From positions 62,001-126,000 of the IMG/VR virus record IMGVR_UViG_3300032753_000003: a stretch of DNA of 64,000 bases. The stretch is one strand, 5' to 3'. The notes beneath the pieces were generated by a model. It was not told the DNA's origin, searched no databases, and saw only the letters and a list, made by a program, of their open reading frames with translations. The position numbers and the translations under genes are program-made. The stretch comes from a virus. Below, piece by piece: positions 40,386 to 58,370 of this stretch; the first letter of the stretch is position 1, and every line of letters starts with the position of its first letter.

Positions 40386-40391
40386 ATCAAT

Positions 40392-40468: not shown

Positions 40469-40497
40469 TATTTCAATATAACTGCATTTACACCCGG

Positions 40498-40503
40498 TAA
40501 ATA
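40498..40503 (+). promoter_or_regulatory. late-type TAAATA box, 5 nt before ATG
   Basis: GTAAATA, ACGAT, then the ATG at 40509; no Shine-Dalgarno. Confidence 0.5.
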
Positions 40504-40508
40504 ACGAT

Positions 40509-40655
40509 ATGAAGCAACTTTTTATCAAATTAAGCTATTGTTGGCACATACCAATCAATATGGTTTCAAAATTCTTTAAGAGAATAAAACAAAAACATGA
40601 GTTCCACAAAAGTATGAAGAAGATGCGCAAACGAAATCCATTTATCTATAGATGA
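40509..40655 (+). CDS. micro-protein with amphipathic N terminus and basic tail
   Basis: 48 residues: KQLFIKLSYCWHIPINMVSK then KKMRKRNPFIYR. The stop overlaps the next start as ATGA. The 36-residue peptide at 41434 has the same plan (hydrophobic/aromatic start, basic tail, ending YIYK), so each enzyme gene of this operon is preceded by such a peptide. Confidence 0.6.
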   Translation: MKQLFIKLSYCWHIPINMVSKFFKRIKQKHEFHKSMKKMRKRNPFIYR

Positions 40656-41437: not shown

Positions 41438-41544
41438 GTTTGATCAAATGGTTCAAAAACAAATGGCACATGATATCATTGCATATGCATAAACGCAAAC
41501 GTTTGGCAGAATTGCGTAAATCTAAAGATTACATATATAAATGA
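41434..41544 (+). CDS. micro-protein, paralogue of 40509
   Basis: 36 residues: MSLIKWFKNKWHMISLHM then KRKRLAELRKSKDYIYK. Overlaps both neighbours by ATGA. Amphipathic and basic; may anchor or tag, function unknown. Confidence 0.6.
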   Translation: MSLIKWFKNKWHMISLHMHKRKRLAELRKSKDYIYK

Positions 41545-42998: not shown

Positions 42999-43008
42999 AG
43001 GTCATAGA

Positions 43009-43803: not shown

Positions 43804-43804
43804 G

Positions 43805-43832
43805 TTGACAGCAATCTAAAAGATGCTATTGT
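43805..43832 (+). promoter_or_regulatory. early-type promoter of structured RNA
   Basis: TTGACA, 16-base spacer, AGATGCTATTGT. No protein gene follows for about 700 bases; the transcript begins with a structured RNA. Confidence 0.85.
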
Positions 43833-43838
43833 ATATGA

Positions 43839-44125
43839 GTAAATGCTGTTTGACAAATTAGAAAGCTTATGCTTTGCTAGAGTAAAGCACGCACTGTGTC
43901 GCGAAAGATCCAGTGAGCTAAGATAGACAGGTCTTGCTCACAAACTGTTTACGCCAGCAGCTGATAGACCCGGCCAGGTTGAATTGATGTTGGTAGTTTA
44001 AGTAGGCTGAAAACCGGAGAACGAGGTTAGGTGCAAGCTCCACAGCAAGGCTCTAACTAGGGATCCAATTGCAGAGATTCGAGACACTCTGCCCAATGTT
44101 TCAGCTGCCGGCGTAAACAGTTATG
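43839..44125 (+). ncRNA. ~285-nt structured RNA
   Basis: A long-range helix joins CTGTTTACGCC (43945) to GGCGTAAACAG (44110), extended by CAGCTG/CAGCTG. The 5' part has TGCTTT/AAAGCA, CACTG/CAGTG and GAGC...GCTC hairpins; the enclosed part has GTTAG/CTAAC and GCAGAG/CTCTGC. No open frame. A consensus promoter is just upstream, tRNA-Pro downstream. No class recognised. Confidence 0.65.
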
Positions 44126-44187
44126 TAAAAAATTATAGTCCAAAAAAGATTAATGTATTATAATATAAATATCGTAACTTGAGTTTT

Positions 44188-44265
44188 CAGGGTATCGCCT
44201 AGCCTGGTATGGCACCAGTTTTGGGTACTGGAATAACGGTGGTTCGAATCCGCCTACCCTGACCA
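44188..44265 (+). tRNA. tRNA-Pro (TGG)
   Basis: Acceptor CAGGGTA/TACCCTG, anticodon arm CCAGT-TTTGGGT-ACTGG, ACCA. A TATAAATA-like box lies 25 bases upstream. Confidence 0.93.
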
Positions 44266-44273
44266 ATAATAAT

Positions 44274-44349
44274 GGGGCCTTAGCTCATTCAGGAGAGCGC
44301 CTGCTTTGCAAGCAGGGGGTGGTCGGGGCAGAGCCGACAGGCTCCACCA
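44274..44349 (+). tRNA. tRNA-Ala (TGC)
   Basis: Acceptor GGGGCCT/AGGCTCC, anticodon arm CCTGC-TTTGCAA-GCAGG, ACCA. T-loop GGCAGAG lacks the usual TTC. Confidence 0.88.
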
Positions 44350-44396
44350 TTATTTTATTATTCAAAACCATTTACTCATCAAAAAATTTAACAAAC

Positions 44397-44471
44397 GGTT
44401 CCATAGTGTACTGGTGCGCACAACGGTCTGTCTAATCGTTAGAGGGGGTTCAAATCCCTCTGGGATCGCCA
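44397..44471 (+). tRNA. tRNA-Asp (GTC)
   Basis: Acceptor GGTTCCA/TGGGATC, anticodon loop CTGTCTA, T-loop TTCAAAT, G73 and CCA. Confidence 0.88.
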
Positions 44472-44541
44472 ACGAATATATTGACATATAGACGTTTTTA
44501 AGTAACTATATATTATAATTTAATTTTAGGAAAGGTGCATT

Positions 44542-44804
44542 ATGTCAGAAAACGATAACAAGATCAAGGTCATATTTGCACCAGGTGCATTTGATAATTT
44601 CGAAGGCACTCAATAGAAGAACTCGAAGAGATAATTCAAGAGATTACAGCTATGGCCAAAATCGGCGAGCTAATAGATCACGCAAGGTTGATAAATGAAG
44701 ACGATTTCAATGATATTCCTGATGATGTTATAATGCAGTTGGCAAGCGGATTTGGCCTTATCGAAGACGAAGAAGTTGAAACTCGCAAGAGACCATTAAA
44801 TTAA
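44542..44804 (+). pseudogene. small acidic conserved protein with frameshift
   Basis: MSENDNKIKVIFAPGAFDNFEGTQ stops at the TAG at 44614, but a frame one base back continues IEELEEIIQEITAMAKIGELIDHARLINEDDF to 44804. Restoring one base gives an 87-residue protein of a family I associate with T4-like cyanophages (FEPGxFDxFxGTQEE). AGGAAAGG site upstream. Indel or -1 recoding. Confidence 0.6.
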
Positions 44805-44808
44805 GAAT

Positions 44809-45549
44809 ATGTACGGCGGTGTGAAGAAACAACTTTGTGGTAAATGCTACAAAGAAATATCAGTTAATAACTTCAACCGGCATTACATATCATGCCTGGC
44901 ATCTGTACCTAAAAAAATACGCGGTATCGACTTTGATCCAAATATAGGATTTAAAAATGGTACAAGGCATGCATGGAACAAAGGATTATCTAAAAATACA
45001 GATAATAGAGTTTTAAAGAACGGGCTGGCTTTAAAGGGGCATCCAAACATTGGTAAATGTGCCGATCCAGAAAAAGAAAAACAACGTATATGTAAATTAT
45101 CTGTTAATGCTAAAAAGCAAGGTTTTGGAGGATACAATAAAAATGCAGGCCATTCTAAAAAATTTAAATATCAAGATAGCTTTGGTAATATTGTAACACT
45201 ACAATCAACCTACGAATTAGATACTGCTAAACTATTAGATAGTTTAAATATTAAATGGATAAGACCATCTTATTTGACATATTATAATAAAAAGTATTAT
45301 CCAGATTTTTTATTAGTTGATTATAACATATATTTAGATCCAAAAAACTCATATCTGGCAATAAAGGATAAAGATAAAATACGACTTGCATCTGAACAGA
45401 ACAATGTTAAAATATTCATACTAGAACAGACGCAAATAAACAAAGAATATATAAACACTATATTGGCGCGTAACTCAGCGGTAGAGTGCAATCCTGATAA
45501 GATTGAAGTCGGTGGTTCAACTCCATCCGCGCCAACCAACTACATGTGA
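44809..45549 (+). CDS. PD-(D/E)XK-type homing endonuclease-like protein running through a tRNA gene
   Basis: 246 residues. N-terminal zinc site (CGKC...H...C), a Gly/Lys/Asn-rich DNA-binding middle (HAWNKGLSKNTDNR), and a nuclease-like domain (SFGNIVTLQSTYELDTAKLLDSLNIKWIRP...YYPDFLLVDYNIYLDPK) as in phage EDxHD/PD-(D/E)XK homing enzymes. The last 28 residues are encoded by tRNA-Ile (45464-45538), so the natural C terminus was probably replaced or extended when it landed beside the tRNA. Related to 45908. Confidence 0.7.
   Translation: MYGGVKKQLCGKCYKEISVNNFNRHYISCLASVPKKIRGIDFDPNIGFKNGTRHAWNKGLSKNTDNRVLKNGLALKGHPNIGKCADPEKEKQRICKLSVNAKKQGFGGYNKNAGHSKKFKYQDSFGNIVTLQSTYELDTAKLLDSLNIKWIRPSYLTYYNKKYYPDFLLVDYNIYLDPKNSYLAIKDKDKIRLASEQNNVKIFILEQTQINKEYINTILARNSAVECNPDKIEVGGSTPSAPTNYM
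45464..45538 (+). tRNA. tRNA-Ile (GAT), inside the 3' end of an endonuclease ORF
   Basis: Acceptor TGGCGCG/CGCGCCA, anticodon arm CAATC-CTGATAA-GATTG, ACCA. Confidence 0.9.
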
Positions 45550-45660
45550 GAAACGCATTTGGTAATGCAGCACAGGCATGTGCGTCCTGAGGTTCAATTC
45601 CTTTTGTGTCTCTGCAAGAGATGCTAGTTTGGAACAGTGCAAGTTCGATTCTTGCTGCTC
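45548..45660 (+). ncRNA. tRNA-like element with ~54-nt insertion before the T-arm
   Basis: Acceptor GTGAGAA/TGCTCAC (one mismatch), D-arm GCAT-TTGGTA-ATGC, a short arm GCAC-AGGCAT-GTGC, then an insertion with TTCC...GGAA and TCTC-TGCAA-GAGA hairpins, then T-arm GCAAG-TTCGATT-CTTGC. No CCA. Same plan as the element at 39917. Confidence 0.45.
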
Positions 45661-45733
45661 ACATTTTATTTAGACAACATTGTTATATGAATTTATAATA
45701 ATGATATTGGGAGAGTACTTAAAATACAAAAGT

Positions 45734-45837
45734 AGAGTATAGATCGGGGATAGTTTAATTGGTAAAACTTCGGACTTTGACTCCGATAACAGATAATGCT
45801 AGTGCAGGTTCGAATCCTGCTCCCCGATCTATACTCT
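45734..45837 (+). repeat. 17-18 bp inverted repeat enclosing tRNA-Gln
   Basis: AGAGTATAGATCGGGGA at 45734-45750 is complementary to 45821-45837, extending the acceptor stem by ten pairs beyond the tRNA. Confidence 0.75.
45744..45827 (+). tRNA. tRNA-Gln (TTG), no encoded CCA
   Basis: Acceptor TCGGGGA/TCCCCGA, anticodon arm TCGGA-CTTTGAC-TCCGA, variable region TAACAGATAATGCTAGT, T-arm GCAGG-TTCGAAT-CCTGC. CCA is replaced by TCTATACTCT, which pairs with the upstream flank. Confidence 0.8.
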
Positions 45838-45907
45838 ATTATGATTCATTGATATAATCGAACCTTCAATTATATTGTGTATAAATACATTATATTGAGG
45901 TTCAATT

Positions 45908-46543
45908 ATGACAAAAATATGTCCCAAATGTTTTACTGAGTTTGATCCGGGTAAATAGAACAAATTATTTTGTTCTAGAAAATGCGCAAATAGTAGAGTA
46001 TTTTCATCAGAAACTAATAGCAGGCGTTCCGTTAGCGTTAAACTTGCAAGGTCTAAATTTAGTAATGACGAGTTACAAGAAATTGCACAAAAACGATTAA
46101 GATCTTATAGGAAAACAAAGCCAGAAATACATTGTAAATGCGGCAAAAAAATTTCAAGATCTAATAAACATAAAATGTGTATAGATTGTTATCGACAAAG
46201 CGATGTATTTTTAGAAGTGTGCGGGCATTATCATAAAAATTATAAACGTATGAAAGTAATTGATTCATTTGGTAACAACGTATTATTGTTGTCATCTTTA
46301 GAAATAAAATATTTTCAATATCTTTCTAACAACCATATAAAATGGATGAAACCTCCTGCTATCAAATACACAGATAATATAGGAAAGACACATATATATT
46401 TTGCAGATTTTTACTTAGTTGATACTAACGAAACAATTGAAGTAAAGGGATATTGGTGGAATAACGATAAACAGAAGATGAAATGGGTTATTGAACAACA
46501 TCCAGAATTAAATATAAAAATTTTAACAAGAAAAGATATTTAA
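45908..46543 (+). pseudogene. PD-(D/E)XK homing endonuclease-like gene with in-frame TAG
   Basis: One frame from ATG 45908 to 46543 with a single TAG at 45956-45958 inside a zinc ribbon (CPKCFTEFDPGK-x-NKLFCSRKCANSR). A second Cys set (CKCGKK...CIDCY) and the nuclease part FADFYLVDTNETIEVKGYW (D...E-x-K) follow. Paralogue of 44809. A TATAAATA box lies about 25 bases upstream. Confidence 0.7.
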
Positions 46544-46563
46544 TATATTTGCCAAAAATTCAG

Positions 46564-46591
46564 TTGCACTAATAGATGCAACGTGTATAAT
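46564..46591 (+). promoter_or_regulatory. tRNA promoter
   Basis: TTGCAC, 16-base spacer, TATAAT, ten bases before tRNA-Leu. Confidence 0.65.
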
Positions 46592-46601
46592 AAACGTATA
46601 G

Positions 46602-46686
46602 GCCCGCTTGGTGGAATTGGTAGACATAAGGGACTTAAAATCCCTCGCTTAATAGCATGCCGGTTCGAGTCCGGCAGCGGGCACCA
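46602..46686 (+). tRNA. tRNA-Leu (TAA)
   Basis: Acceptor GCCCGCT/AGCGGGC, anticodon arm AGGGA-CTTAAAA-TCCCT, long variable arm, ACCA. Confidence 0.94.
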
Positions 46687-46705
46687 AACTTAACAGGAAC
46701 AGCAG

Positions 46706-47158
46706 ATGACTGCCACAGAGAATCTCAACAAATGGGACAAGCGATTCATTGAACTAGCCAACCATGTGTCAACATGGAGCAAGGATCCGCGTACCAAAGT
46801 TGGTGCAGTGGTTGTGTCGCCTGACCGCAGAGTCATCAGTCTTGGTTACAATGGGTTCCCCCGTGGTGTTGAGGATACTGATGAGCGATTGACAGATAGA
46901 GCCACCAAATTGAGATTTGTAGCCCATGCTGAGCGCAATGCTCTGGACAACTGTGATCAGAACATGCGAGATTGCACCATGTATGTCACGCTGCAACCCT
47001 GTGCCGAATGCACCAAGAGCATTATACAAAGGGGTATCAAGCGAGTGATCTGCATACTGGATCATTCACGACCTGAGTATGTAGCTGATTTTGTAGATTA
47101 CAGTGCAGCAATGATGCAGGAAGCTGGCGTTGAAGTAGTGAGTATTGATATAACCTGA
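46706..47158 (+). CDS. dCMP deaminase family protein
   Basis: 150 residues. DPRTKVGAVVV, HAERNAL (zinc His and catalytic Glu) and TLQPCAECTKSIIQRGIKRV (zinc Cys pair) are the deoxycytidylate deaminase motifs; it converts dCMP to dUMP to feed dTMP synthesis. Length equals the compact phage and bacterial form. It lies between tRNAs with AGGAACAG upstream. Confidence 0.93.
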   Translation: MTATENLNKWDKRFIELANHVSTWSKDPRTKVGAVVVSPDRRVISLGYNGFPRGVEDTDERLTDRATKLRFVAHAERNALDNCDQNMRDCTMYVTLQPCAECTKSIIQRGIKRVICILDHSRPEYVADFVDYSAAMMQEAGVEVVSIDIT

Positions 47159-47201
47159 GTAAGTGTTGTTAGAGGCACGCTGGTCTGTGGAAACAAACTG
47201 G

Positions 47202-47229
47202 TTGACAGCATGTGTAAACGTGCTATTGT
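47202..47229 (+). promoter_or_regulatory. early-type promoter
   Basis: TTGACA, 16-base spacer, CGTGCTATTGT; seven bases before tRNA-Met. Confidence 0.85.
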
Positions 47230-47236
47230 AAGACAT

Positions 47237-47312
47237 GGACTGGTAGTATAACGGTTAATGCGCCCGCCTCATAAGCGGTCCTATGTAGGTTCGAATCCTA
47301 CCCGGTCCACCA
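47237..47312 (+). tRNA. tRNA-Met/Ile2 (CAT)
   Basis: Acceptor GGACTGG/CCGGTCC, anticodon loop CTCATAA, T-arm GTAGG-TTCGAAT-CCTAC, ACCA. Confidence 0.9.
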
Positions 47313-47319
47313 AAGTTTA

Positions 47320-47400
47320 GCCCCGTCAACGTGGGATGCGTCGGTCCAGAGGTAACGTTACTGGACTGGGAGTGCGGTTCAAATCCGACGCGGGGCGCCA
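47320..47400 (+). ncRNA. tRNA-like gene with enlarged anticodon loop
   Basis: Acceptor GCCCCGT/GCGGGGC, G73 and CCA, D-arm ACG-TGGGATG-CGT, T-arm with one bulge (GTgCGG/CCGAC). The anticodon arm GTCCA...TGGAC carries a 13-base loop GAGGTAACGTTAC, so no anticodon is safe (GGT possible). Confidence 0.5.
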
Positions 47401-47458
47401 AAGTTTTAACTGTTAATCCGTTTATGGTATAAATACTATATTAAATGGATTAACAGTT

Positions 47459-48136
47459 ATGGATTATCAAAGTCATTATAATCGCCTAATAGGACGAGCT
47501 AGAGTGCGATCATTGTCCGGTTATGGCGAAAAGCACCACATACTTCCGCGATGCATGGGAGGAGATGATAGCGACGGTAATCTGGTTACTCTTACAGCCA
47601 GAGAGCACTTTATCGCACATCTGCTTTTAGTTAAGATATATGGTAACGATTTTAGATTGATCAAAGCAGCGGCAATGATGTGTATGGGTCAAGACCAACG
47701 CAAGATGAATAACAAGCTCTACAGCAAATTTAGAGAGTTATGGCGAGCAGCTATGTCTGATAGCCAAACAGGTCAAGGTAACTCGCAATGGGGCACTAAA
47801 TGGATTTACAGCGATACTCTCAAATTATCTCGGAAAATTCCTAAAGAACAAGATATACCGAATGGATGGAATTTAGGTAGGATAGTGAACTTTGATAAGA
47901 AACCTCGGCCGTTACCAACTAAAGATAAACGACGAGATATAATAAGAGAGAAAAATACTGCGCTGGCAAGAAACCTGTACAATAGTTATGTAAATGGTAA
48001 TTTTGTATCGATAAGAGACTTTTGTAGGTTAGGAAATTATACAAAATCGCATGTATCTTTAACAAAGATGTGGAAAAAGTTTATTCCTGAATTCGCTGAT
48101 AATGTTAAACCAGGAAAAAGGTTTATTCCTAAGTAG
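47459..48136 (+). CDS. HNH homing endonuclease
   Basis: 225 residues. GEKHHILPRCMGGDDSDGNLVTLTAREHFIAHLLL is a classic HNH core (His-His, Asn, His). A basic middle and a C-terminal helix-turn-helix-like region (SIRDFCRLGNYTKSHVSLTKMWKK) would bind DNA. A TATAAATA box lies about 26 bases upstream. The last four codons lie inside tRNA-Asn. Confidence 0.9.
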   Translation: MDYQSHYNRLIGRARVRSLSGYGEKHHILPRCMGGDDSDGNLVTLTAREHFIAHLLLVKIYGNDFRLIKAAAMMCMGQDQRKMNNKLYSKFRELWRAAMSDSQTGQGNSQWGTKWIYSDTLKLSRKIPKEQDIPNGWNLGRIVNFDKKPRPLPTKDKRRDIIREKNTALARNLYNSYVNGNFVSIRDFCRLGNYTKSHVSLTKMWKKFIPEFADNVKPGKRFIPK

Positions 48137-48202
48137 CACAACTGGTAGTGCGCCGCACTGTTAATGCGGAGGTTGCTGGATCGTACCCAGCCTTAGGAGC
48201 CA
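48127..48202 (+). tRNA. tRNA-Asn (GTT)
   Basis: Acceptor TCCTAAG/CTTAGGA, anticodon arm CCGCA-CTGTTAA-TGCGG, normal short variable loop, G73 and CCA. Contrast with the type II tRNA-Asn at 37344. Confidence 0.9.
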
Positions 48203-48205
48203 ATT

Positions 48206-48265
48206 GGCAAGGGGAACAACCGGGCAGTCCGGCGTGAAGAACGCATGGCAACGCGGCCCCTTGCT
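48206..48265 (+). ncRNA. small structured RNA between tRNAs
   Basis: GCAAGGGG (48207) pairs with CCCCTTGC (48257); inside are CCGG-GCAGT-CCGG and GCGT-GAAGA-ACGC hairpins. An AGGTT/AACCT stem follows it. Confidence 0.4.
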
Positions 48266-48337
48266 GCTGAGGTTAGAGGGTTGTAGGTGACCTGTACGGA
48301 CTGGGAACCTTCAAACACATTATAAATATGTGTATAC

Positions 48338-48426
48338 GGAGGGTTATCAAGCCTGGGATGCTTGCACGGTCTTGAAAACCGTCGGAACCTTTGGGTCAGG
48401 AGTTCGATTCTGCCAGCCCTCCGCCA
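48338..48426 (+). tRNA. tRNA-Ser (TGA)
   Basis: Anticodon arm ACGGT-CTTGAAA-ACCGT, long variable arm, acceptor GGAGGGT/GCCCTCC, G73 and CCA. Confidence 0.88.
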
Positions 48427-48444
48427 TTAATTCAAATGTTATGT

Positions 48445-48537
48445 GGAAGAGAAACTAGCTGGGAGCTAGTACTGATTGGAAATCAGTGGGGACCGTATCT
48501 GTTACGGTCTGCGGATCGAGACCGCTCTCTTCCTCCA
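48445..48537 (+). tRNA. tRNA-Ser (GGA)
   Basis: Acceptor GGAAGAG/CTCTTCC, anticodon arm ACTGA-TTGGAAA-TCAGT, long variable arm, CCA encoded. Confidence 0.9.
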
Positions 48538-48543
48538 CTATGC

Positions 48544-48635
48544 GGAAAAGTATCTCAGGTGGCCCTAGGTACGGCGTCGAATACCGTCAGTACCTTTGGT
48601 TTGGTATGGAGATCGACACTACCACTTTTCCACCA
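48544..48635 (+). tRNA. tRNA-Ser (CGA), second copy
   Basis: Acceptor GGAAAAG/CTTTTCC, anticodon CGA in loop GTCGAAT (one stem mismatch), long variable arm, ACCA. Confidence 0.82.
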
Positions 48636-48641
48636 TAAATA
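48636..48641 (+). promoter_or_regulatory. late-type TAAATA box, 5 nt before ATG
   Basis: Starts right after the tRNA-Ser CCA; TAAATA, TCAAC, ATG at 48647. Same 15-mer as at 40143. Confidence 0.6.
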
Positions 48642-48646
48642 TCAAC

Positions 48647-49792
48647 ATGTCAGATAAACCATTTTGTATATGGCCTTGGTTCCATCAAACTGTCAAAACT
48701 AACGGAAATGTTACACCGTGCGTGGTATGGAATGAAGATATTGATTCAGTTAACTATGAAAATTTTATCACCAGTCAGTTTATGCAATCTCTAAGAGATT
48801 CATTTAGACAGGGTATTCCGCATGAAAAATGCAAAAGATGTGTATATCTAGATAAATTTTCAGATTTAAGTGTTAGACGGTGGGGGTTTAATGTAGCCGA
48901 TTCTATTGGTATTGGCGAGTTTGAAGCATTAGATGCTACGTCAAATTTAATAGTACAAAGCCAAGATGTCAACTTGAGTAATGTATGCAATTTAAAGTGC
49001 AGAACTTGTAACCAAACCCGTAGTACTAAATGGATGTCTGATGCAGTAGCAATGGGAGAAAAACCAGTTGGTCTATTACGATCAAATTGGTCATTGACTA
49101 CAGAACAAGCAATTAAAATCAAACGACTTAGATTTCCGGGCGGTGAGCCGCTGTTGCACCAGGACATAATATGCAATGAATTAAATAAGATTAAAAAATT
49201 TGGTACTATATCCGAGTTTGTATTGCATTTAACAACTAATATGACAATACCATTCTCAAATGAACTTGTAGAATTAATGAAAGACACAAAGCAAACATTT
49301 ATAAGCTGTAGTGTAGATGGCGTTGGTAAGATAAACAATTATATAAGGTCAGACAGCAAATGGGAAACAATTGAAAGTAATATATTCGCGCTTGAAAAAA
49401 TATGTGTTGAAAACAACAACATAATTTTTGATATCAGTACGGTATACAGTGTATTCAATTCTAACTCGTTAGATGAATTGATAAATTGGACACATAGAAA
49501 TAATTTCAAGCACGGATTAATAATATTAGATCGCCCAACTATACATGATGCGAGAAATTTACCTGTTGATTACAAGAATCTTTTAATTGACAGATACAAA
49601 GATACATTAAAAAAATTCCCAAATCATATCCAATTAATTGAATCAGTTATAACACATCTCAGTAACTCCCCGATAATAGATATTAGCAGTTGGAAAGAAC
49701 AATTTAAGAAACATAATGACTTTTTAGATTATAGACGAAATTCTAAATTAGAAGATGTAAATTTAGAATTATCTTTTATTGTAAATAATTGA
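48647..49792 (+). CDS. twitch-type radical SAM protein
   Basis: 381 residues from the ATG at 48647. N-terminal Cys set (FCIWPWFHQTVKTNGNVTPC, HEKCKRC) forms the twitch cluster; the radical SAM motif CNLKCRTC has Cys114, Cys118 and Cys121, with FPGGEPLLH and LTTNMT after it. Same family as the gene at 25317 and as twitch radical SAM proteins of marine T4-like phages. Preceded by a late-type box, so it may act late, unlike the operon at 20749. Confidence 0.9.
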   Translation: MSDKPFCIWPWFHQTVKTNGNVTPCVVWNEDIDSVNYENFITSQFMQSLRDSFRQGIPHEKCKRCVYLDKFSDLSVRRWGFNVADSIGIGEFEALDATSNLIVQSQDVNLSNVCNLKCRTCNQTRSTKWMSDAVAMGEKPVGLLRSNWSLTTEQAIKIKRLRFPGGEPLLHQDIICNELNKIKKFGTISEFVLHLTTNMTIPFSNELVELMKDTKQTFISCSVDGVGKINNYIRSDSKWETIESNIFALEKICVENNNIIFDISTVYSVFNSNSLDELINWTHRNNFKHGLIILDRPTIHDARNLPVDYKNLLIDRYKDTLKKFPNHIQLIESVITHLSNSPIIDISSWKEQFKKHNDFLDYRRNSKLEDVNLELSFIVNN

Positions 49793-49816
49793 CATAATAT
49801 AATAATATTTTATATG
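49789..49816 (+). promoter_or_regulatory. putative tRNA promoter
   Basis: TTGACA then TATATG after 16 bases, at the start of tRNA-Gly; the short distance makes it uncertain. Confidence 0.4.
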
Positions 49817-49918
49817 CGGGTGTAGCTCAGCGGTAGAGCGCAACCTTGCCTAAGCACATTCTGAGCAGTGTGCTTAACAAGGTTGATGTCGAGAGTTCGA
49901 TCCTCTTCGCCCGCTCCA
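49816..49918 (+). tRNA. tRNA-Gly (GCC) interrupted by a 28-nt hairpin in the anticodon loop
   Basis: Without bases 49851-49878 this is a perfect tRNA-Gly: acceptor GCGGGTG/CGCCCGC, anticodon arm CAACC-TTGCCAA-GGTTG, T-arm GAGAG-TTCGATC-CTCTT, T73 and CCA. The extra 28 bases start right after GCC and form TAAGCACA-TTCTGAGCAG-TGTGCTTA plus AC. It is too short for a group I intron and lacks a clear archaeal bulge-helix-bulge. Confidence 0.8.
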
Positions 49919-49926
49919 TTCTTTAG

Positions 49927-49932
49927 TAAATA
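49927..49932 (+). promoter_or_regulatory. late-type TAAATA box, 4 nt before ATG
   Basis: GTAAATA, GTTG, ATG at 49937; no Shine-Dalgarno. Confidence 0.55.
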
Positions 49933-49936
49933 GTTG

Positions 49937-50530
49937 ATGAAAATAAACGAACTAGAACGCAACACCCTAAGCAAGACTGGCTTGCATCTTCCGCGCAAGC
50001 GTTCTCAATTTCCTAAAGAACTGCCATTCAAAATAGAAGGTTTTGAATTGCGTTATATTAAGAACAATTGGGGAGAAACTACAGTATCTGCCTGGGATGG
50101 CGATACAGAAGTTATGGAGATAACACTAGAACCAATTGCCTATCAAAGCATACGATGCCATAGTATTATAAAAGCTGTGGTAAATCCGCAATACCAAGGC
50201 AAAGGGTTGGGCCTATCTCTATACAAGGGTTTGATAATAAATTTGGATATGCCTATCATCAGCAACGACAGTCACAGTCCCGGTGCTAGAAAGATGTGGG
50301 TCAGGTTAAATCAAGATCCAGCCGTAGATGTATATGGATTTGATTTAAGTTCAAACCGAGTGTTTGCCGTTGGTCCAGATGAATCGGGCACAGAATTATC
50401 TGCATCATCAAAGGACGTTGAACTATACGGACAGCCAAGCACTGGCGTAATAGCTACACGTAAAAACGGACAAGCAGATACCATTATGAAATCCCTACTT
50501 AGACAAAGCCAAATAAAACATAGCGGTTGA
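49937..50530 (+). CDS. GNAT-like acyltransferase with N-terminal tag
   Basis: 197 residues. MKINELERN tag, then a GNAT core: HSIIKAVVNPQYQGKGLGLSLYKGLI is strand 4, the acetyl-CoA pyrophosphate loop (QGKGLG) and helix 3. NDSHSPGARKMWVRLNQDP follows. It would acetylate a protein or small molecule. Intact paralogue of the broken gene at 37479. Confidence 0.75.
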   Translation: MKINELERNTLSKTGLHLPRKRSQFPKELPFKIEGFELRYIKNNWGETTVSAWDGDTEVMEITLEPIAYQSIRCHSIIKAVVNPQYQGKGLGLSLYKGLIINLDMPIISNDSHSPGARKMWVRLNQDPAVDVYGFDLSSNRVFAVGPDESGTELSASSKDVELYGQPSTGVIATRKNGQADTIMKSLLRQSQIKHSG

Positions 50531-50554
50531 CAAACTAGATATACATGTTATAGT
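50527..50554 (+). promoter_or_regulatory. early-type promoter
   Basis: TTGACA, 16-base spacer, CATGTTATAGT; upstream of 50579. Confidence 0.7.
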
Positions 50555-50578
50555 ATTCCCATCCTCAGGAGAATCAAC

Positions 50579-50887
50579 ATGGATGTAAATTTCATTTGGA
50601 TTGGATATTGCAACCGAGACAATCACGACAAAGTTTGGGGCATCCTTTGCATGAACAACTTTAGTGGAGGTGTTCCTCATGGAACTCCTGTACATATTTT
50701 TTGGGGAGGCAGAGGCAAATCACTATCGTTTAAATCTGACAAAATGAATTTCCCTCTACATAAGTTAATTGACACAAAGGAGGGCAAGGGTTATAGGAGG
50801 ATCAGCGCTACGGATCTACGTAGCATGTGTACTGATTTTGACGATACTCTAAAACAGCGATTGACCCTACATATATTGAGTCAATAA
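50579..50887 (+). CDS. small hypothetical protein
   Basis: 102 residues with CAGGAGA upstream. FIWIGYCNRDNHDKVWGILCM...VHIFWGGRGKSLSFK suggests a WGR-like beta fold, but this is uncertain. Early gene. Confidence 0.6.
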   Translation: MDVNFIWIGYCNRDNHDKVWGILCMNNFSGGVPHGTPVHIFWGGRGKSLSFKSDKMNFPLHKLIDTKEGKGYRRISATDLRSMCTDFDDTLKQRLTLHILSQ

Positions 50888-50962
50888 TTTGTTATAAATC
50901 TTGCATCTATTTGTTTTGTATAATACAATAGATCATAAGGGTTAGACATTAGAGAGAGAAAA

Positions 50963-51511
50963 ATGGCAGAGCAAAAAGATCAACTGGACGAAAATAACAT
51001 CTACCTCTTCATGGAGGATTTCACTAACAAGACTGTGAAGCCGGTGATCGATTGGATACTGCAAAAGAATCTCGCACCAACCAAGAGCCGGCCAAAGCAT
51101 CTAACTCTTATGATCAATAGTCCCGGCGGCGAAGTACATTCTGCGTTTGCCTTGATTGATATCATGAAGGGTAGCACTATTCCTGTCCGTACTGTAGGAC
51201 TTGGTATGATCGCTAGCTGTGGACTATTGACATTTATGAGTGGTGAGAAGGGTCACCGGGTAATTACTCCAAATACCAGTATATTGAGCCATCAGTATAG
51301 TTGGGGATCGTATGGCAAGGAGCACGAGCTATTTGCTAGGGTCAAGGAGTTTGAGCTAAGCACTGAACGCATGTTAGAACATTACAAGAAGTGTACTGGT
51401 CTAAATGAAAAAGATGTGCGCAAGTATCTACTACCTGAAAAGGATGTTTGGTTGAGTGCCGAAGAAGCAGTCAAGCATGGTATTGCAGATGAGATCAAAG
51501 AGACGTATTAA
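50963..51511 (+). CDS. ClpP-like serine protease
   Basis: 182 residues. LMINSPGGEVHSAFALIDIM is the conserved oxyanion region; Ser in GLGMIASCGLL (near 90) and His in ILSHQYSWGS (near 114) match the ClpP/SppA catalytic Ser-His, with EEAVKHGIADEI at the end. No ClpX-type ATPase partner is in the window; it might cut the capsid scaffold or use a host ATPase. AGAGAGA site upstream. Confidence 0.85.
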   Translation: MAEQKDQLDENNIYLFMEDFTNKTVKPVIDWILQKNLAPTKSRPKHLTLMINSPGGEVHSAFALIDIMKGSTIPVRTVGLGMIASCGLLTFMSGEKGHRVITPNTSILSHQYSWGSYGKEHELFARVKEFELSTERMLEHYKKCTGLNEKDVRKYLLPEKDVWLSAEEAVKHGIADEIKETY

Positions 51512-51555
51512 GTGATACTTATTTCTACTAAAAACTAAATTGGTAAATTTATAAT

Positions 51556-52229
51556 ATGAAGCCAGTTATAATCTATAGTATGCAAAGGACTCGTAGTAGT
51601 GCAGTGCTTTATTCTTGTATACGAACACAACGTTTATACGAGCCCTTTGGCATAGATACAATTTTTGACGGACATTGGCGAGCACATTCGTTGTTTCCAA
51701 CATTTAACAAATACGTTTCAGATTTAGATTGGACATCATTAATAGAAAAAATGAATGATCCTAATTCAGTAACTAAAATTTTTGGATACCATATATGGAA
51801 ATCTAAAAATGGCAGAAAATGGTTTGAAAGTGCTATTAAAGACAATACACATGATATATTTGTATTAGAAAGAGATTGGATGGAAATAGGATTGTCTAGC
51901 TGTTTGGCTAGGATCACAGGATATGATATTGATCATGAGAAAAAAGATTTCCAATTTCAGTAGACGACGAAACATTTAATAATTTAACTATGCAACTAGA
52001 TTCTTTCATAAGATTTTATCCATCTAGAGGTCAATTAATCACATATGAGAATCTACCAAATAGTCACTTTAATAAAGAATTAAATCATATAATAAATCAG
52101 ACGTCTAATCTTAAGTTGCAACTTATTCAAAATCTTGAATGGACTAAAAAGGTTATAGAAGATATATATGATTTCTATAAAGACGAATGGGATGCAAAAA
52201 GAAATGCGTTGCTAACTTCGAACAGTTGA
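51556..52229 (+). pseudogene. sulfotransferase-like protein with frameshift in A6 run
   Basis: The first 128 residues (IIYSMQRTRSSAVLYSC: a PAPS-binding-loop-like start; HDIFVLERDWMEIGLSS) end early; adding one A to the run at 51940-51945 continues RFPISVDDETFNNLTMQLDS to the ORF ending at 52229 (about 224 residues). Likely a sulfotransferase-fold protein; substrate unknown. Indel, sequence error or slippage. Confidence 0.6.
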
Positions 52230-52253
52230 CAACATCTTAAAAGATGTTATTAT
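52226..52253 (+). promoter_or_regulatory. early-type promoter
   Basis: TTGACA, 16-base spacer, AGATGTTATTAT; upstream of the tRNA Gly-Val-Leu cluster. Confidence 0.82.
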
Positions 52254-52276
52254 ATTTGAAGTAAATACAGTCACAA

Positions 52277-52350
52277 GCGGGTGTAGCTCAATGGTAGAGC
52301 CACTGCCTTCCAAGCAGAAGACGAGGGTTCGATTCCCTTCACCCGCTCCA
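52277..52350 (+). tRNA. tRNA-Gly (TCC)
   Basis: Acceptor GCGGGTG/CACCCGC, anticodon arm ACTGC-CTTCCAA-GCAGA, T73 and CCA. Uninterrupted, unlike the GCC isoacceptor. Confidence 0.93.
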
Positions 52351-52360
52351 ATTATACAAA

Positions 52361-52436
52361 GGGTCCTTAGCTCAGTGGTAGTAGCGCTATCTTTACACGG
52401 TAGATGTCGTAGGTTCGACCCCTACAGGACCCACCA
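52361..52436 (+). tRNA. tRNA-Val (TAC)
   Basis: Acceptor GGGTCCT/AGGACCC, anticodon arm CTATC-TTTACAC-GGTAG, ACCA. Confidence 0.93.
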
Positions 52437-52442
52437 TAAATT

Positions 52443-52526
52443 GCACTAGTGGCGGAATGGTAGACGTGATGGTCTTAGGAACCATTGCTGAAAGGCGTGG
52501 GGGTTCGAGTCCCTCCTGGTGCACCA
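52443..52526 (+). tRNA. tRNA-Leu (TAG)
   Basis: Acceptor GCACTAG/CTGGTGC, anticodon arm ATGGT-CTTAGGA-ACCAT, long variable arm, ACCA. Confidence 0.93.
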
Positions 52527-52550
52527 ACCAATATAACAGAGGATGAAAGC

Positions 52551-52898
52551 ATGTATTATCGAGTGAACATTAACCTACCATCTACTCGTAAACAAAACAG
52601 CAAGCTGGTAAATTACATCGAGCCTCTTCGAGCCAAAGGTCTAGTTGAAGTTGGCAAGACCTACAAGCTTAATCTAAATAATCACTCGCTCTATCAAGAA
52701 CCCACTTGGGCTGGTGCCAATTACGATAATCCATTCTGGTTCACAGATAGAACTCTAGCAGAGAAGTTCATTGAAGATTGGGACGAACTAGCTGTCAAGC
52801 GAGAAGTGTATAGCAAGTTGGCATACAATCGAATGGCGAAGTTCTTTACAGAAATTAGCCAAGTAGAAGAAGTCAAAGAGTTCAAAGATTTTATCTAA
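52551..52898 (+). CDS. hypothetical protein
   Basis: 115 residues from the ATG at 52551 (AGAGGATG site); longer starts run into tRNA-Leu. Alpha/beta with a basic start and a helical C terminus (NRMAKFFTEISQVEEVKEFKDF). Function unknown. Confidence 0.6.
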   Translation: MYYRVNINLPSTRKQNSKLVNYIEPLRAKGLVEVGKTYKLNLNNHSLYQEPTWAGANYDNPFWFTDRTLAEKFIEDWDELAVKREVYSKLAYNRMAKFFTEISQVEEVKEFKDFI

Positions 52899-52905
52899 TA
52901 TTAGA

Positions 52906-53021
52906 TTGCGCTGCTGTTAGCAGAGTGAACAAGGTACCAATTCGTGGCTAGATCGAGCTCGACGCTTCGAGTCAAATTGGACAATACCAAGTAGCTTCAG
53001 AGTAACGATCTGACAGCGCAA
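52906..53021 (+). ncRNA. ~116-nt structured RNA
   Basis: TTGCGCTG pairs with CAGCGCAA; inside GGTA/TACC, CCAATT/AATTGG and TCGAGC/GCTTCGA stack coaxially into one long arm. It has no open frame and follows the gene at 52551 by eight bases. No class recognised. Confidence 0.55.
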
Positions 53022-53037
53022 GCTATCTTTTATCTTT

Positions 53038-53341
53038 TACACCAAACATCTAGTGATGTGCTATTAACCCATGGTATCTGTTTGTGTTTGAGATAGGCAT
53101 ATTGCCATTCATGCAGCTACGAATACGTCTGCAGAATAAGGTACAACTAAGTTGTTGAAAATACTTTGCCAAACTGTCTCAAACGACCAAAAATGTCCAG
53201 ATAGGCAAACTGCTACTTTCACATTAACTATCCTTTGTGATTATAACTTTATAATAGTGTAATATATCAGTCTCTGTATACCAAATTGGCATTAGATTTT
53301 CTTCAAACTAAATATTATTGGTATTTGAAGGAGAGACTGTC
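53038..53341 (+). other. gene-free stretch with paired segments
   Basis: GATGTGCTATTA at 53055 resembles the early -10 region, with a poor -35. After it GTTTGAGA (53087) pairs with TCTCAAAC (53181), enclosing GGC-ATATT-GCC, TGCAG/CTGCA and ACAAC-TAA-GTTGT hairpins, so a further structured RNA is likely at 53085-53200. A CTAAATA box lies before the next gene. Confidence 0.4.
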
Positions 53342-54151
53342 GTGACCAAAAGATCTTACGGATGGAAACAATCTAAACCTGATCCACGTGATCACAAACT
53401 TAAAACTATAAATCCTGCAGTATATAATAGTTTACCTGCCTCCGTTGATTTGAGGCAATATGTACCAGAAGTTTTAGATCAAGGCGATTTGCAATCATGT
53501 ACAGCTAACAGTATCAGTATGGCAATAAGAGTTGCTAGAGCAATACAAAAATTACCCGATTTGCAACCATCAAGATTGTTCATCTATTACAATGAACGAC
53601 TATTAGAAGGCACAGTTGATCAAGACGCAGGTGCCGAACTTAGAGATGGTGCAAAGGTAGTAGCTACATACGGTGCACCTGCTGAATCAGTTTGGGCATA
53701 TGTAGATAACAACTTATATGTTGAACCAAGCAAAGAGGCCTATGAATCTGCGGTACAGGATGAAGTCAACAAATATCTAGCTGTAGACCAAACCCTAAAT
53801 GAACTCAAGTTGTGTTTGCACGAAGGTTTTCCATTTGTGTTTGGTGCTATGCTGTATTCTGCATTTGAATCAGACGATGTAGCAAAAACTGGTATTGTAC
53901 CGATGCCAGATCCCAATGATCAGCTGATTGGCGGTCATGCATTATGCTGCGTTGGTTATGATGATAGCCGCAAGGTATTCATAGTTCTTAACAGTTGGAG
54001 CGACACTTGGGGTGATCACGGATATTGTTATTTCCCATATGATTATATGACCAATCCAAATCTGTGTTTAGACTTCTGGACTATTAGGAATATTGCTCCC
54101 ACTGATCCTAATAGACAATGGGTTATTCCAAATGTTAATGCACAAGCATAG
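53342..54151 (+). CDS. papain-like (C1A) cysteine peptidase
   Basis: 269 residues, GTG start with GGAGAG upstream. DQGDLQSCTANS holds Gln47 and catalytic Cys53; GGHALCCVGYD the His and VLNSWSDTWGDHGYCYF the Asn and the typical GxxGY. N-terminal KPDPRDHKLKT is the usual linker in bacterial/phage members. No signal peptide, so it acts in the cytoplasm or in the virion. A late-type box is about 30 bases upstream. Confidence 0.88.
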   Translation: MTKRSYGWKQSKPDPRDHKLKTINPAVYNSLPASVDLRQYVPEVLDQGDLQSCTANSISMAIRVARAIQKLPDLQPSRLFIYYNERLLEGTVDQDAGAELRDGAKVVATYGAPAESVWAYVDNNLYVEPSKEAYESAVQDEVNKYLAVDQTLNELKLCLHEGFPFVFGAMLYSAFESDDVAKTGIVPMPDPNDQLIGGHALCCVGYDDSRKVFIVLNSWSDTWGDHGYCYFPYDYMTNPNLCLDFWTIRNIAPTDPNRQWVIPNVNAQA

Positions 54152-54180
54152 TTGATATATTATAGATAATGTGTTAATAT
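54152..54180 (+). promoter_or_regulatory. tRNA promoter
   Basis: TTGATA, 17-base spacer, GTTAATAT; eight bases before tRNA-Cys. Confidence 0.55.
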
Positions 54181-54187
54181 AAATTGT

Positions 54188-54262
54188 GGAACGGTGGCAG
54201 AGTAGTTATGCAACAGCCTGCAAAGCTGTATTAGGTAGGTTCAATTCCTACCCGTTCCTCCA
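54188..54262 (+). tRNA. tRNA-Cys (GCA)
   Basis: Acceptor GGAACGG/CCGTTCC, anticodon arm ACAGC-CTGCAAA-GCTGT, CCA encoded. Confidence 0.92.
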
Positions 54263-54279
54263 ATTCCTACCCGTTCCTC
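54242..54279 (+). repeat. 19-bp tandem duplication of the tRNA-Cys 3' end
   Basis: CAATTCCTACCCGTTCCTC occurs twice in a row, the second copy just outside the tRNA. Confidence 0.9.
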
Positions 54280-54295
54280 CAATTTGGTTAACATA

Positions 54296-54502
54296 ATGCA
54301 AGACGATGGTTTCAAAGTATTAATTTGTGACCCAATTGATATAGTAAACATTTACGAATGGTTTCTAGATCAAGGTATATCTGTAAAAGATATTAGCCTT
54401 GTTGACGTAAGTGATGTTAGCGCATTTGATACCATACTGGAAGTGGTATTTGATAACAAAGAAGATGCTATGTTTTTTAATATCACATGGGGCGGTAAAT
54501 GA
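54296..54502 (+). CDS. small hypothetical protein (FxxTW family)
   Basis: 68 residues from ATG 54296. Ends NKEDAMFFNITWGGK, like the small family at 216-2060, and immediately overlaps a membrane protein gene (ATGA). No clear ribosome site. Function unknown. Confidence 0.6.
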   Translation: MQDDGFKVLICDPIDIVNIYEWFLDQGISVKDISLVDVSDVSAFDTILEVVFDNKEDAMFFNITWGGK

Positions 54503-54720
54503 AGGTAGATAAGTTTCTCAAATGGTTTGCTACTTTTACACTGATTGTTGGTGCTATCCTCACCAGCATGGACATCCGTCCTTGGAACATATGGGCGTTT
54601 AATACAGCCAATTTGTCTTGGTTAATAGTTGGTATTATCTGGAAGGAGTGGAGCCTGGTGGTTATGAACGGTGTGTTGATAGCTATCTATGCCTACGGAT
54701 TATTGTTTACTTTTGGATAA
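54499..54720 (+). CDS. small membrane protein
   Basis: 73 residues with two or three membrane segments (about 8-24, 38-48, 52-70). Overlaps the previous stop. Many phages encode such proteins next to DNA-injection or superinfection genes; role unknown. Confidence 0.65.
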   Translation: MKVDKFLKWFATFTLIVGAILTSMDIRPWNIWAFNTANLSWLIVGIIWKEWSLVVMNGVLIAIYAYGLLFTFG

Positions 54721-54726
54721 TGACTA

Positions 54727-54755
54727 TTGAGTTTTTGCTATTTAGACGCTATAGT
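54727..54755 (+). promoter_or_regulatory. tRNA promoter
   Basis: TTGAGT, 17-base spacer, GACGCTATAGT; upstream of tRNA-Met. Confidence 0.65.
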
Positions 54756-54770
54756 TAAGATTATAAATGA

Positions 54771-54846
54771 TGCGGATTAGAGAAGTGGTCATCTCGCTTG
54801 GTTCATACCCAGGAAATCGAAAGTTCGAATCTTTCATCCGCAACCA
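54771..54846 (+). tRNA. tRNA-Met (CAT)
   Basis: Acceptor TGCGGAT/ATCCGCA, anticodon arm CTTGG-TTCATAC-CCAGG, ACCA. A paired first position argues for elongator type. Confidence 0.88.
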
Positions 54847-54858
54847 CCTCTCATAGAG

Positions 54859-55065
54859 ATGCCAATGACCATAGACGAATTTGCTAAAAATCTAGCGCTT
54901 GACCTGCGCAACAAATCTTTAGAAATATCCAAGAAGGTACAGAACGGAAAGTCTGACGGGTTCCATGCGTTAGTGGATGCTACTATTGCGTCCACTCTCA
55001 TGCATGTAGCAGATTCAGTCTTAGAGGCGTCAATTGAAAAGATCAGTAATCATACAATACGTTGA
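54859..55065 (+). CDS. small helical hypothetical protein
   Basis: 68 residues, all-helical, with an AGAG site just upstream; a second ATG six bases on is an alternative start. Function unknown. Confidence 0.55.
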   Translation: MPMTIDEFAKNLALDLRNKSLEISKKVQNGKSDGFHALVDATIASTLMHVADSVLEASIEKISNHTIR

Positions 55066-55124
55066 TATCTATTTTTAACACCTGGTAAATAATATGCTAT
55101 CTAATTAGCAAGTACCGGGGGTAA

Positions 55125-55364
55125 TTGGCTGTGAAAGATCTAGAATCAAGATTCATCAGCGAATTTGAATTGATATATAGACATCGACGCAATTGGAATA
55201 GAACTATCAAAAGCTCGATTAGGATAATAACTAGCAGTGTTGTGGCTATCTATATCTTGGTCAAATGGTTAAATTCTACAGCCCCGCAAACTGATCTTAT
55301 GGTTTATATCTTAGCTATAGGTTACGGATTAGCAGAATTTATAGGTGTTGTTGAAAATTGGTAG
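55125..55364 (+). CDS. small membrane protein
   Basis: 79 residues; basic N terminus then two membrane segments (about 31-47 and 56-74). Start is TTG 55125 or GTG 55131; a GGGGGT site favours either. A TAAATA box lies about 35 bases upstream. Function unknown. Confidence 0.55.
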   Translation: MAVKDLESRFISEFELIYRHRRNWNRTIKSSIRIITSSVVAIYILVKWLNSTAPQTDLMVYILAIGYGLAEFIGVVENW

Positions 55365-55403
55365 GTATTTAACTTTAGCAATTTATCTAAATAAACACAG
55401 CAT

Positions 55404-55479
55404 GCATCTGTAGCTCAATGGACAGAGCATTGCCCTCCGAAGGCAAGGGTCAAAGGTTCAAATCCTTTCGGGTGCTCCA
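55404..55479 (+). tRNA. tRNA-Arg (CCG)
   Basis: Acceptor GCATCTG/CGGGTGC, anticodon arm TTGCC-CTCCGAA-GGCAA, T73 and CCA. Confidence 0.88.
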
Positions 55480-56846: not shown

Positions 56847-56874
56847 TTGACCTAATTTACTAAAGGTCTTATAT
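56847..56874 (+). promoter_or_regulatory. promoter of the giant structured RNA
   Basis: TTGACC, 16-base spacer, TTATAT; about seven bases before the first RNA helix. Confidence 0.65.
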
Positions 56875-56880
56875 TAACAA

Positions 56881-57732
56881 TATAGACGCTGAGGACAACG
56901 CAAGTTGAACTTGGTGCAGAAATTGGTTGCATGAACCAATAAGCTGGGTGACCAGTAAATTGCGGTGAAGCCTACATAACCGCGCCGTAACTTGTTACGG
57001 AAATCATGCAAGCTTGGGTTAGACTTGACTCGGTAATACCGAAAGCAAGTCCCGTCAGTAGAATGGCGGTATGCGGTAAGTTACCGCAATGGGTCCGAAA
57101 GGATAGTGTCAGAGCCAATCGGTGAGACACAATGTGGTTGGCGCCACAGCCTATTGCACGCCAGGGTAACGAGCGCAGAAGACCAACAGGTGGATGTGAG
57201 TCTGACTGTTCGCGCAGAAAGGCAAAGCATCAGTTCAAAAGTCAAAGGGATAACCGGAGACTTGAAGAACAGCTAAGTAGCCCGCAAGGTGAAAAGTATG
57301 CGGCGTGGTGTATTGGGTATGCCAAAAGCATATTCAGCAACTGAGGTAGCACGTCGTTGTTAGGTTGATAAAAAGCAAAGACTACCTCGGTTACATAGGT
57401 AAGGTATCAAATACTTGACTCGCAAGAGAATCAAGTCTAATAGACCTCGCAAGGGAATATTAGTTAGTCATGGATGTTTCATAGACGGTTAGCGCTGTCG
57501 AACTGCTCGCAAGGTAGGTGGGAAGAAAGTGGCTGAGAACTATGTAATGACACCGCGGAACGTGAGCGGTATATAAGAACGTGATACTAGTGAATACAAA
57601 TGTACCGCAAGGACATTTGTGGTCAAGAAATTAACAGATCCCGCAAGGATGCTGGTACGGTTTCTAAGGTCACTGTATAAAGCTGTAGGCTCAAGCTTTT
57701 CAAAACACCAAACATAATGTTTGGTGTTTTCT
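56881..57732 (+). ncRNA. giant ornate structured RNA, GOLLD/ROOL-like
   Basis: About 850 bases without a credible gene, from promoter to terminator. At least a dozen helices are visible, among them CCGTAAC/GTTACGG, GACTTG/CAAGTC, GCGGTAA/TTACCGC, GTGTC/GACAC, TGGCG/CGCCA, ACTTGA/TCAAGT, CTAATA/TATTAG, ACCGC/GCGGT and ACAAATGT/ACATTTGT. Six are capped by GCAA tetraloops (57284, 57422, 57449, 57509, 57607, 57643) and others by GAAA, the sign of tertiary packing. Size, phage setting and tRNA neighbourhood match GOLLD RNAs; ROOL is the alternative. Class membership is inferred. Confidence 0.75.
57704..57732 (+). terminator. terminator of the giant RNA
   Basis: AACACCAAAC-ATAAT-GTTTGGTGTT followed by TT and C. 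Confidence 0.85.
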
Positions 57733-57749: not shown

Positions 57750-58370
57750 ATGCAAAAGCGTAAATTTCAAGAAAAGTTTATAGATTCTATTCTTGATCAC
57801 GCTAACAGTTTACAATCATTAATGGTAGTCAAATCAAACGTAGATCGTGAGATATCAGAACTCTCATTAAAACGTAAACAATTACATTCTACTCTTAAGA
57901 AAGAAACTACATTAAGGTTACAAAGTTTTTATCTTCTTAGAAAACGCATTGAAATTATGTTACCGTCTTTTATAGACGATGCAACAAAACTACAATTAGA
58001 ATTGCTCGTTCCTGAACACGAACGGACTGACATTTATCGATATAGATGTATGTGTGCATTTAAATTAACTGCAAATGAGTTGCAGCACGTCAAGGGATAT
58101 GATCTATTAGTCAAATATGGATATTACAACTCTATTAATACAATTGGAGTTGTTAAAGATCATCGACTTTCAATCAAAGCTGGATTTATATCCAAAATTA
58201 ATCCAGAACTTCTATCTCATCCTGCAAACTGCGAATTTTTATTGCACAAAGATAATTTAAACAAATCATCTAATTCGTCAATTACATTAGACGATTTGCA
58301 AAAAGAAATTGTTGATTGGAATAATAGAGCTAATCAAAAAACAAAAAGATGGAAAACATTCTCTAATTAA
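57750..58370 (+). CDS. HNH-like endonuclease, paralogue of the 8902 gene C terminus
   Basis: 206 residues. N-terminal coiled coil (residues 10-60), then VVKDHRLSIKAGFISKINPELLSHPANCEFLLHKDNLNKSSNSSITLDDLQKEI, which matches RDHLFTKVDGF...YPEILRHPANCKIITHGEN in the 8902 product: an HNH variant with DH, HPAN and H-x-x-N. It lies directly after the giant RNA, so it may be a mobile endonuclease associated with it. Confidence 0.7.
   Translation: MQKRKFQEKFIDSILDHANSLQSLMVVKSNVDREISELSLKRKQLHSTLKKETTLRLQSFYLLRKRIEIMLPSFIDDATKLQLELLVPEHERTDIYRYRCMCAFKLTANELQHVKGYDLLVKYGYYNSINTIGVVKDHRLSIKAGFISKINPELLSHPANCEFLLHKDNLNKSSNSSITLDDLQKEIVDWNNRANQKTKRWKTFSN

What the first reader, a model, noticed from the sequence alone, without database searches (positions are those of the whole stretch)
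56881..57732. Giant (~850 nt) structured RNA of GOLLD/ROOL type with its own promoter and terminator
Seen: a gene-free 850-base unit bounded by an early-type promoter and a strong terminator, at least a dozen perfect helices, six GCAA and several GAAA tetraloops. Known: GOLLD and ROOL are very large ornate RNAs of phages and prophages, often beside tRNAs, of unresolved function. Inference: this is a member or a new relative. Next to it lies an HNH-like gene.
Basis: partly seen in the sequence, partly recalled or inferred. Interest (0 to 1): 0.88.

Follow-up and report, generated by a model that had tools for sequence, protein, structure and literature searches.

The report
Phage GOLLD RNA, empty tRNA slot
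A large phage carries an ~820-base GOLLD RNA, a known family whose solved member self-assembles into hollow RNA cages; in most of its close relatives the cage linker holds a shortened tRNA mimic with an unusually fast-changing anticodon loop, and in this phage that slot is empty.

Summary
Window 57300-57697 is GOLLD (RF02032, 169 bits against a cut-off of 150, E 1e-45); nothing matches ROOL. The 5' half has no Rfam match but is homologous to the 5' half of dozens of other viral GOLLDs, and a 109-pair consensus from 34 of them shows compensatory change in 85 pairs (96.5% of cells paired, shuffles 78.2%, 0/500). The window copy keeps 105 of the 109. It starts behind a promoter-like site, ends in a 13-bp terminator, has no conserved reading frame, and lies 1.4 kb downstream of a 29-tRNA array.

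So this is a new, intact member of a known family. The surprise is in its relatives. Most of 85 distinct GOLLDs carry, in the linker, a tRNA-like module with complete D, anticodon and T arms but an acceptor stem of only 4-5 bp. Its anticodon loop is hypervariable: among modules with bodies at least 93% alike, 23 of 37 pairs differ in anticodon, against 0 of 75 for ordinary tRNAs of the same phages. Cultured Caulobacter phages show it (annotated as tRNA-Gly or tRNA-Lys). In the window the slot is empty. Cage assembly and a tRNA-decoy role are inferred, not shown.

The parts
56847..56875 (+). promoter-like site (TTGACC, 17 nt, TATATT); predicted RNA start near 56882
   Evidence: consensus match only, no transcript data
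56882..57732 (+). predicted full-length GOLLD RNA
   Evidence: from the predicted start to the terminator
56887..56916 (+). variable 5' leader hairpin, not shared with relatives
   Evidence: folds; not alignable in A1
56918..57299 (+). 5' domain (cap domain by analogy with the cryo-EM structure)
   Evidence: homology to other GOLLD 5' halves; covariation in 34 sequences
57300..57697 (+). 3' domain, Rfam GOLLD RF02032 positions 1-416
   Evidence: 169 bits, gathering score 150, E 1.1e-45
57362..57376 (+). linker with empty module slot (AGGTT-GATA-AAAAGC); relatives have about 70 nt more here
   Evidence: gap 4 nt here, the smallest of 85 distinct GOLLDs; about 70 nt in most
57702..57732 (+). intrinsic terminator, 13-bp stem followed by a T-rich tail
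   Evidence: -16.7 kcal/mol for the stretch, z -5.5
57750..58370 (+). neighbouring gene, 206 aa, HNH-like by resemblance only (phrog_23051); not shown to belong to the RNA
35352..55479 (+). array of 29 tRNA genes on the same strand, upstream of the RNA

Best explanation
A structured non-coding RNA of the GOLLD family, made as its own transcript of about 820-850 nt by a phage of at least 200 kb. By homology with the solved GOLLD it most likely folds into a 5' cap domain and a 3' ring domain and assembles into a homo-oligomeric hollow cage. The linker that faces the lumen is here cut down to a few bases, so this copy lacks the tRNA-like module found in most relatives of its clade; if it acts, it acts as a bare cage. 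Shown here: family, domain make-up, conserved pairing, terminator hairpin, empty slot. Inferred: transcription start, cage assembly, any function. Most likely general role of the clade (about 1 in 3): protecting phage translation, with the relatives' lumen tRNA mimics as decoys for enzymes that act on tRNA anticodon loops.
For: Rfam hit over the full model. Of 18 viral contigs holding a 16-mer from the 5' half of this RNA, 13 also have RF02032 at E <= 0.001, so the two halves travel together. Covariation: 85 of 109 pairs of the 5' domain change on both sides, 96.5% of cells paired against 78.2% in shuffles and 34-39% when the partners are slid; whole-RNA alignment 143 of 216 pairs. This copy is intact: 105 of 109 consensus pairs kept. 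tRNAs are about 17 times denser around relatives than in background loci (1.05 against 0.06 per kb). Cage structure of GOLLD with separate cap and ring domains and the linker inside: PMC12286853.
Against: No transcript data. Promoter matches are not enriched locally. On the smaller 13-sequence alignment the window pairs slightly less well than its relatives (90.7% and 93.9% against 96.7% and 97.7%), so mild relaxation cannot be excluded.
Confidence: 0.8

Rival explanations
1. The RNA is a decaying copy that has lost its tRNA module and no longer functions.
For: The slot is the shortest of 85 distinct GOLLDs; pairing on the 13-sequence alignment is a little below the relatives.
Against: 105 of 109 consensus pairs kept on the 34-sequence alignment, equal to the mean of the others; Rfam score above the gathering cut-off; terminator intact. 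GOLLDs without a linker tRNA are normal elsewhere: env-38 has a 42-nt disordered linker (PMC12286853).
Confidence: 0.12
2. GOLLD acts mainly late in infection as a scaffold or ribosome-binding RNA, and the tRNA-like inserts of relatives are neutral passengers derived from neighbouring tRNA genes.
For: GOLLD rises during lysis and was dispensable for phage production in one Lactobacillus prophage (PMC7567579 and PMC12286853, citing earlier work); ribosomes bind GOLLD in pull-downs (PMC12286853); tRNA genes are abundant nearby; a 'pseudo tRNA' inside mycobacterial GOLLD gave no separate transcript (PMC6582537).
Against: Passengers should decay evenly. Instead the arms stay paired, acceptors are uniformly 4-5 bp (50 of 64) and the anticodon loop diverges far faster than the body.
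Confidence: 0.35
3. The region is protein-coding or a chance structured stretch.
For: ORFs of up to 70 aa exist inside it, and tblastn finds them in some relatives.
Against: The relatives' frames hold stops and indels and no start codon is kept; the tblastn hits follow nucleotide similarity; covariation exceeds all shuffles.
Confidence: 0.01

Closest known systems
GOLLD RNA (Rfam RF02032)
   Same: 3' domain matches the whole covariance model; separate, more variable 5' domain; phage genome; tRNA array nearby; HNH genes in the neighbourhood as reported for mycobacterial GOLLD clusters (PMC6582537, PMC9569102)
   Different: linker reduced to a few bases; private 5' leader hairpin; 5' domain outside the Rfam model
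GOLLD of Caulobacter phages phiCbK, CcrKarma, BL57 and of MD18, Phosso, Cp1R7A-A1 (loci L230-L235)
   Same: same 5'+3' architecture, all above the RF02032 cut-off
   Different: they carry a linker module, annotated as tRNA-Gly, -Lys, -Arg or -Leu in five of them and unannotated in Phosso; the window does not
GOLLD env-38 (cryo-EM 14-mer, PMC12286853)
   Same: family, cap and ring domains, linker without a tRNA
   Different: sequence not compared here; oligomer of the window RNA untested
ROOL RNA
   Same: size, phage setting, cage in cryo-EM
   Different: no model match

Membership tests
GOLLD (RF02032) | match to the covariance model above the gathering score, full length | tested here: met
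   169 bits against 150, model 1-416
GOLLD (RF02032) | conserved 3' region preceded by a structured, less conserved 5' region, >800 nt in all | tested here: met
GOLLD (RF02032) | covariation-supported helices | tested here: met
   143 of 216 pairs; 85 of 109 pairs
GOLLD (RF02032) | phage or prophage location, often near tRNAs | tested here: met
   199,865-bp virus record; 29 tRNAs
GOLLD (RF02032) | symmetric kissing loop with a self-complementary dinucleotide (bridge B8) | tested here: inconclusive
   loop UUAGCG with the GC dinucleotide is present in the window and in all 11 aligned relatives whose sequence reaches it, but its identity with loop L21a rests on position only
GOLLD (RF02032) | homo-14-mer cage | not testable with these tools
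   needs mass photometry or cryo-EM
GOLLD (RF02032) | expression during the lytic cycle | not testable with these tools
   no transcript data for this phage
ROOL | match to the ROOL covariance model | tested here: not met
   no ROOL hit, even at E <= 1

The most novel reading that the evidence does not exclude
GOLLD cages of this clade are carriers of an exchangeable tRNA mimic that is unlikely to be a normal tRNA (4-5 bp acceptor stem, both ends continuous with the cage RNA) and whose anticodon loop evolves far faster than the rest, most simply as a lumen-displayed decoy or bait in an arms race with host enzymes that cut or modify tRNA anticodon loops. The window RNA is an empty-slot allele of such a cage. 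The pattern itself is measured here; the decoy role is inference.
Probability: 0.3. Interest if true: 0.87.

Novelty: new member of a known kind. Interest (0 to 1): 0.55.

Why it matters
The function of GOLLD has been open since its discovery. The window RNA is one more member, but tracing its relatives shows that one small part, the anticodon loop of a linker tRNA mimic, changes while everything around it stays nearly fixed. That points to a working part and gives a direct experiment in culturable laboratory phages (Caulobacter phiCbK against CcrKarma, whose GOLLDs differ at about 10 positions, 5 of them in that loop). It also suggests that some tRNA genes annotated in phage genomes are parts of a giant RNA and not separate tRNAs.

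Tried and rejected
Direct blastn of the RNA against 50,697 phage records found nothing, and a 23-base exact pattern found nothing in IMG/VR. The search for related loci with the 410-aa neighbour found nothing. Only short GOLLD-wide or 5'-domain patterns worked. The genome-collection pattern returned 11 bacterial contigs, none of which gave a 5'- or 3'-domain profile hit. The first automatic acceptor-stem finder picked wobble helices with upstream bases; it was replaced by a fixed-geometry test with real tRNAs as control. tblastn hits of internal ORFs looked like a conserved frame but are explained by RNA conservation. The idea that the module sits elsewhere in this genome found no support from one strict pattern. 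The most relevant paper on GOLLD in mycobacterial tRNA arrays (PMC7549688) is not held, and the original GOLLD papers did not turn up, so earlier notice of the loop pattern cannot be excluded.

Full report
What was checked. The finding names 56881-57732. Rfam gives a full-length GOLLD match at 57300-57697, 169 bits, E 1.1e-45, and no other family in the neighbourhood even at E <= 1; ROOL is therefore excluded. The record is a 199,865-bp virus contig with one GOLLD. Nearly nothing in it is close to any of 50,697 phage records (one 77-base match); its genes include a DNA polymerase, RIIA and a Dda-like helicase as in T4-like phages.

The 5' half. 56881-57299 matches no Rfam family, and direct similarity searches failed. 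A pattern from the 3' end brought in 11 other GOLLD contigs, of which one clearly shared the 5' half too. Patterns from that shared part gave 14 more contigs with GOLLD, and two further scans raised the set to 85 distinct GOLLDs with both halves, the window included. The nearest in the 5' domain is L123, 73% identical. On 34 diverse 5' domains a 109-pair consensus has 96.5% of cells paired, 85 pairs with compensatory change and a covariation score of 0.571 against 0.213 in shuffles, 0 of 500 shuffles reaching any measure, and 34-39% paired when partners are slid. The window keeps 105 of these 109 pairs. Related sequences can beat the shuffles without structure, and the consensus was derived from the same alignment, but the size of the excess makes chance very unlikely here.

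Boundaries and coding. A promoter-like site at 56847-56875 puts the start near 56882, just before a private 5' hairpin. A 13-bp hairpin with a T-rich tail at 57702-57732 ends it. Internal ORFs are not conserved. The neighbouring 206-aa gene resembles HNH-like phage proteins only weakly; a clear HNH gene lies 2 kb further on. HNH genes and GOLLD co-occur in mycobacterial tRNA clusters (PMC6582537, PMC9569102).

The slot. In GOLLD the linker near the domain boundary points into the cage (PMC12286853). In the window this linker is AGGTT-GATA-AAAAGC, a gap of 4 nt between the two profile hits, the smallest of the 85; most have about 70 nt. That insert is a tRNA-like module: ARAGORN calls a tRNA in 69 of the 85. 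Its T, D and anticodon arms are complete, but with the standard two-base connector the acceptor helix runs for 4 or 5 pairs in 50 of 64 modules, while 21 of 27 ordinary tRNAs of the window have 7. Both ends are continuous with GOLLD, so charging is unlikely unless it is cut out (inference). tRNAs in the GOLLD linker, and a 'pseudo tRNA' without its own transcript, have been noted before (PMC12286853, PMC6582537); the uniformly short acceptor and what follows I did not find in the open literature searched, and key papers were not available.

The anticodon loop. Among modules whose bodies are at least 93% identical, the 7-nt loop differs at 38.6% of sites and the body at 4.3%; 23 of 37 pairs have different anticodons. 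For ordinary tRNAs from the same loci the figures are 1.3%, 3.8% and 0 of 75. Cultured Caulobacter phages show the same: over 860 aligned columns nine isolates vary in 15, of which 5 fall in the 7-base loop (CGTCCTA in phiCbK, Ccr10, Ccr29, S2L; CTCTTAA in CcrKarma, Magneto, Swift, RBC57, Ccr5; CATCCTA in the more distant BL57), while the rest of the 72-nt module is invariant. The computed probability (1.6e-8) treats sites as independent; the loop change is probably one event, so recurrence across several clusters (L036/L039, L126/L131/L133, L195/L205, L090/L146) is the better evidence. Pairs within a cluster are not independent either, so the pair counts overstate the number of events. Whole modules are also exchanged between nearly identical GOLLDs (L120/L122, L041/L043, L160/L170). 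Loops favour anticodons ending in U: CUU, UCU, GUU and UUU make up 46 of 67, and only 8 of 32 distinct loops occur among 839 ordinary tRNAs.

How it works, with likelihoods. Family membership is as good as certain. Assembly into a cage is likely by homology (about 0.75). For the function of the clade I favour a decoy or bait against enzymes acting on anticodon loops (about 0.3-0.35), because phage tRNAs have been proposed to meet such enzymes through anticodon-loop change (PMC10264068) and because the loop is the part that varies here. A scaffold role with neutral passengers is about as likely (0.35). The window copy, with an empty slot, cannot work through such a module and would be the bare cage; it is a natural control for the clade.

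Verdict. Most of the interest lies in the module pattern of its relatives, to which the window contributes the empty-slot case.

Noticed in passing
L230 1591-1662 (phiCbK), L231 1591-1662 (CcrKarma), L234 1602-1673 (BL57), L232 1585-1658 (MD18), L235 1607-1678 (Cp1R7A-A1): Annotated tRNA-Gly, -Lys, -Arg and -Leu genes of cultured phages lie inside GOLLD RNAs; those of the Caulobacter phages clearly look like acceptor-shortened tRNA mimics rather than separate tRNAs.
   Followed up: partly
linker of about 70 related GOLLDs, e.g. L036, L039, L126, L131, L133: Hypervariable anticodon loop in an otherwise conserved tRNA-like module; most loops end in U36-A37-A38, the sequence on which t6A modification depends (own knowledge).
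   Followed up: partly
L094 7690-8017: The one relative seen whose linker tRNA (Ile, UAU) has a full 7-bp acceptor stem and extra flanks; perhaps a recently captured real tRNA.
   Followed up: no
L230 and L231 699-1017 (-), L234 641-959 (-), L232 2200-2615 (+): Phage-encoded permuted or alphaproteobacterial-type tmRNA close to GOLLD in four cultured phages.
   Followed up: no
L226 3191-8594 (G000:C1 about 129.2-134.6 kb): A PrkA/YeaG-like kinase gene (67% identical to an annotated YeaG) followed by two genes that look by eye like YeaH and SpoVR; an unusual bacterial stress cluster in a phage.
   Followed up: no
window 757-1692, 20749-25291, 48596-49792: Several radical-SAM-like genes (CxxxCxxC motifs read by eye) in one phage window, beside a carbamoyltransferase gene at 41541-42998 (Pfam).
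   Followed up: no
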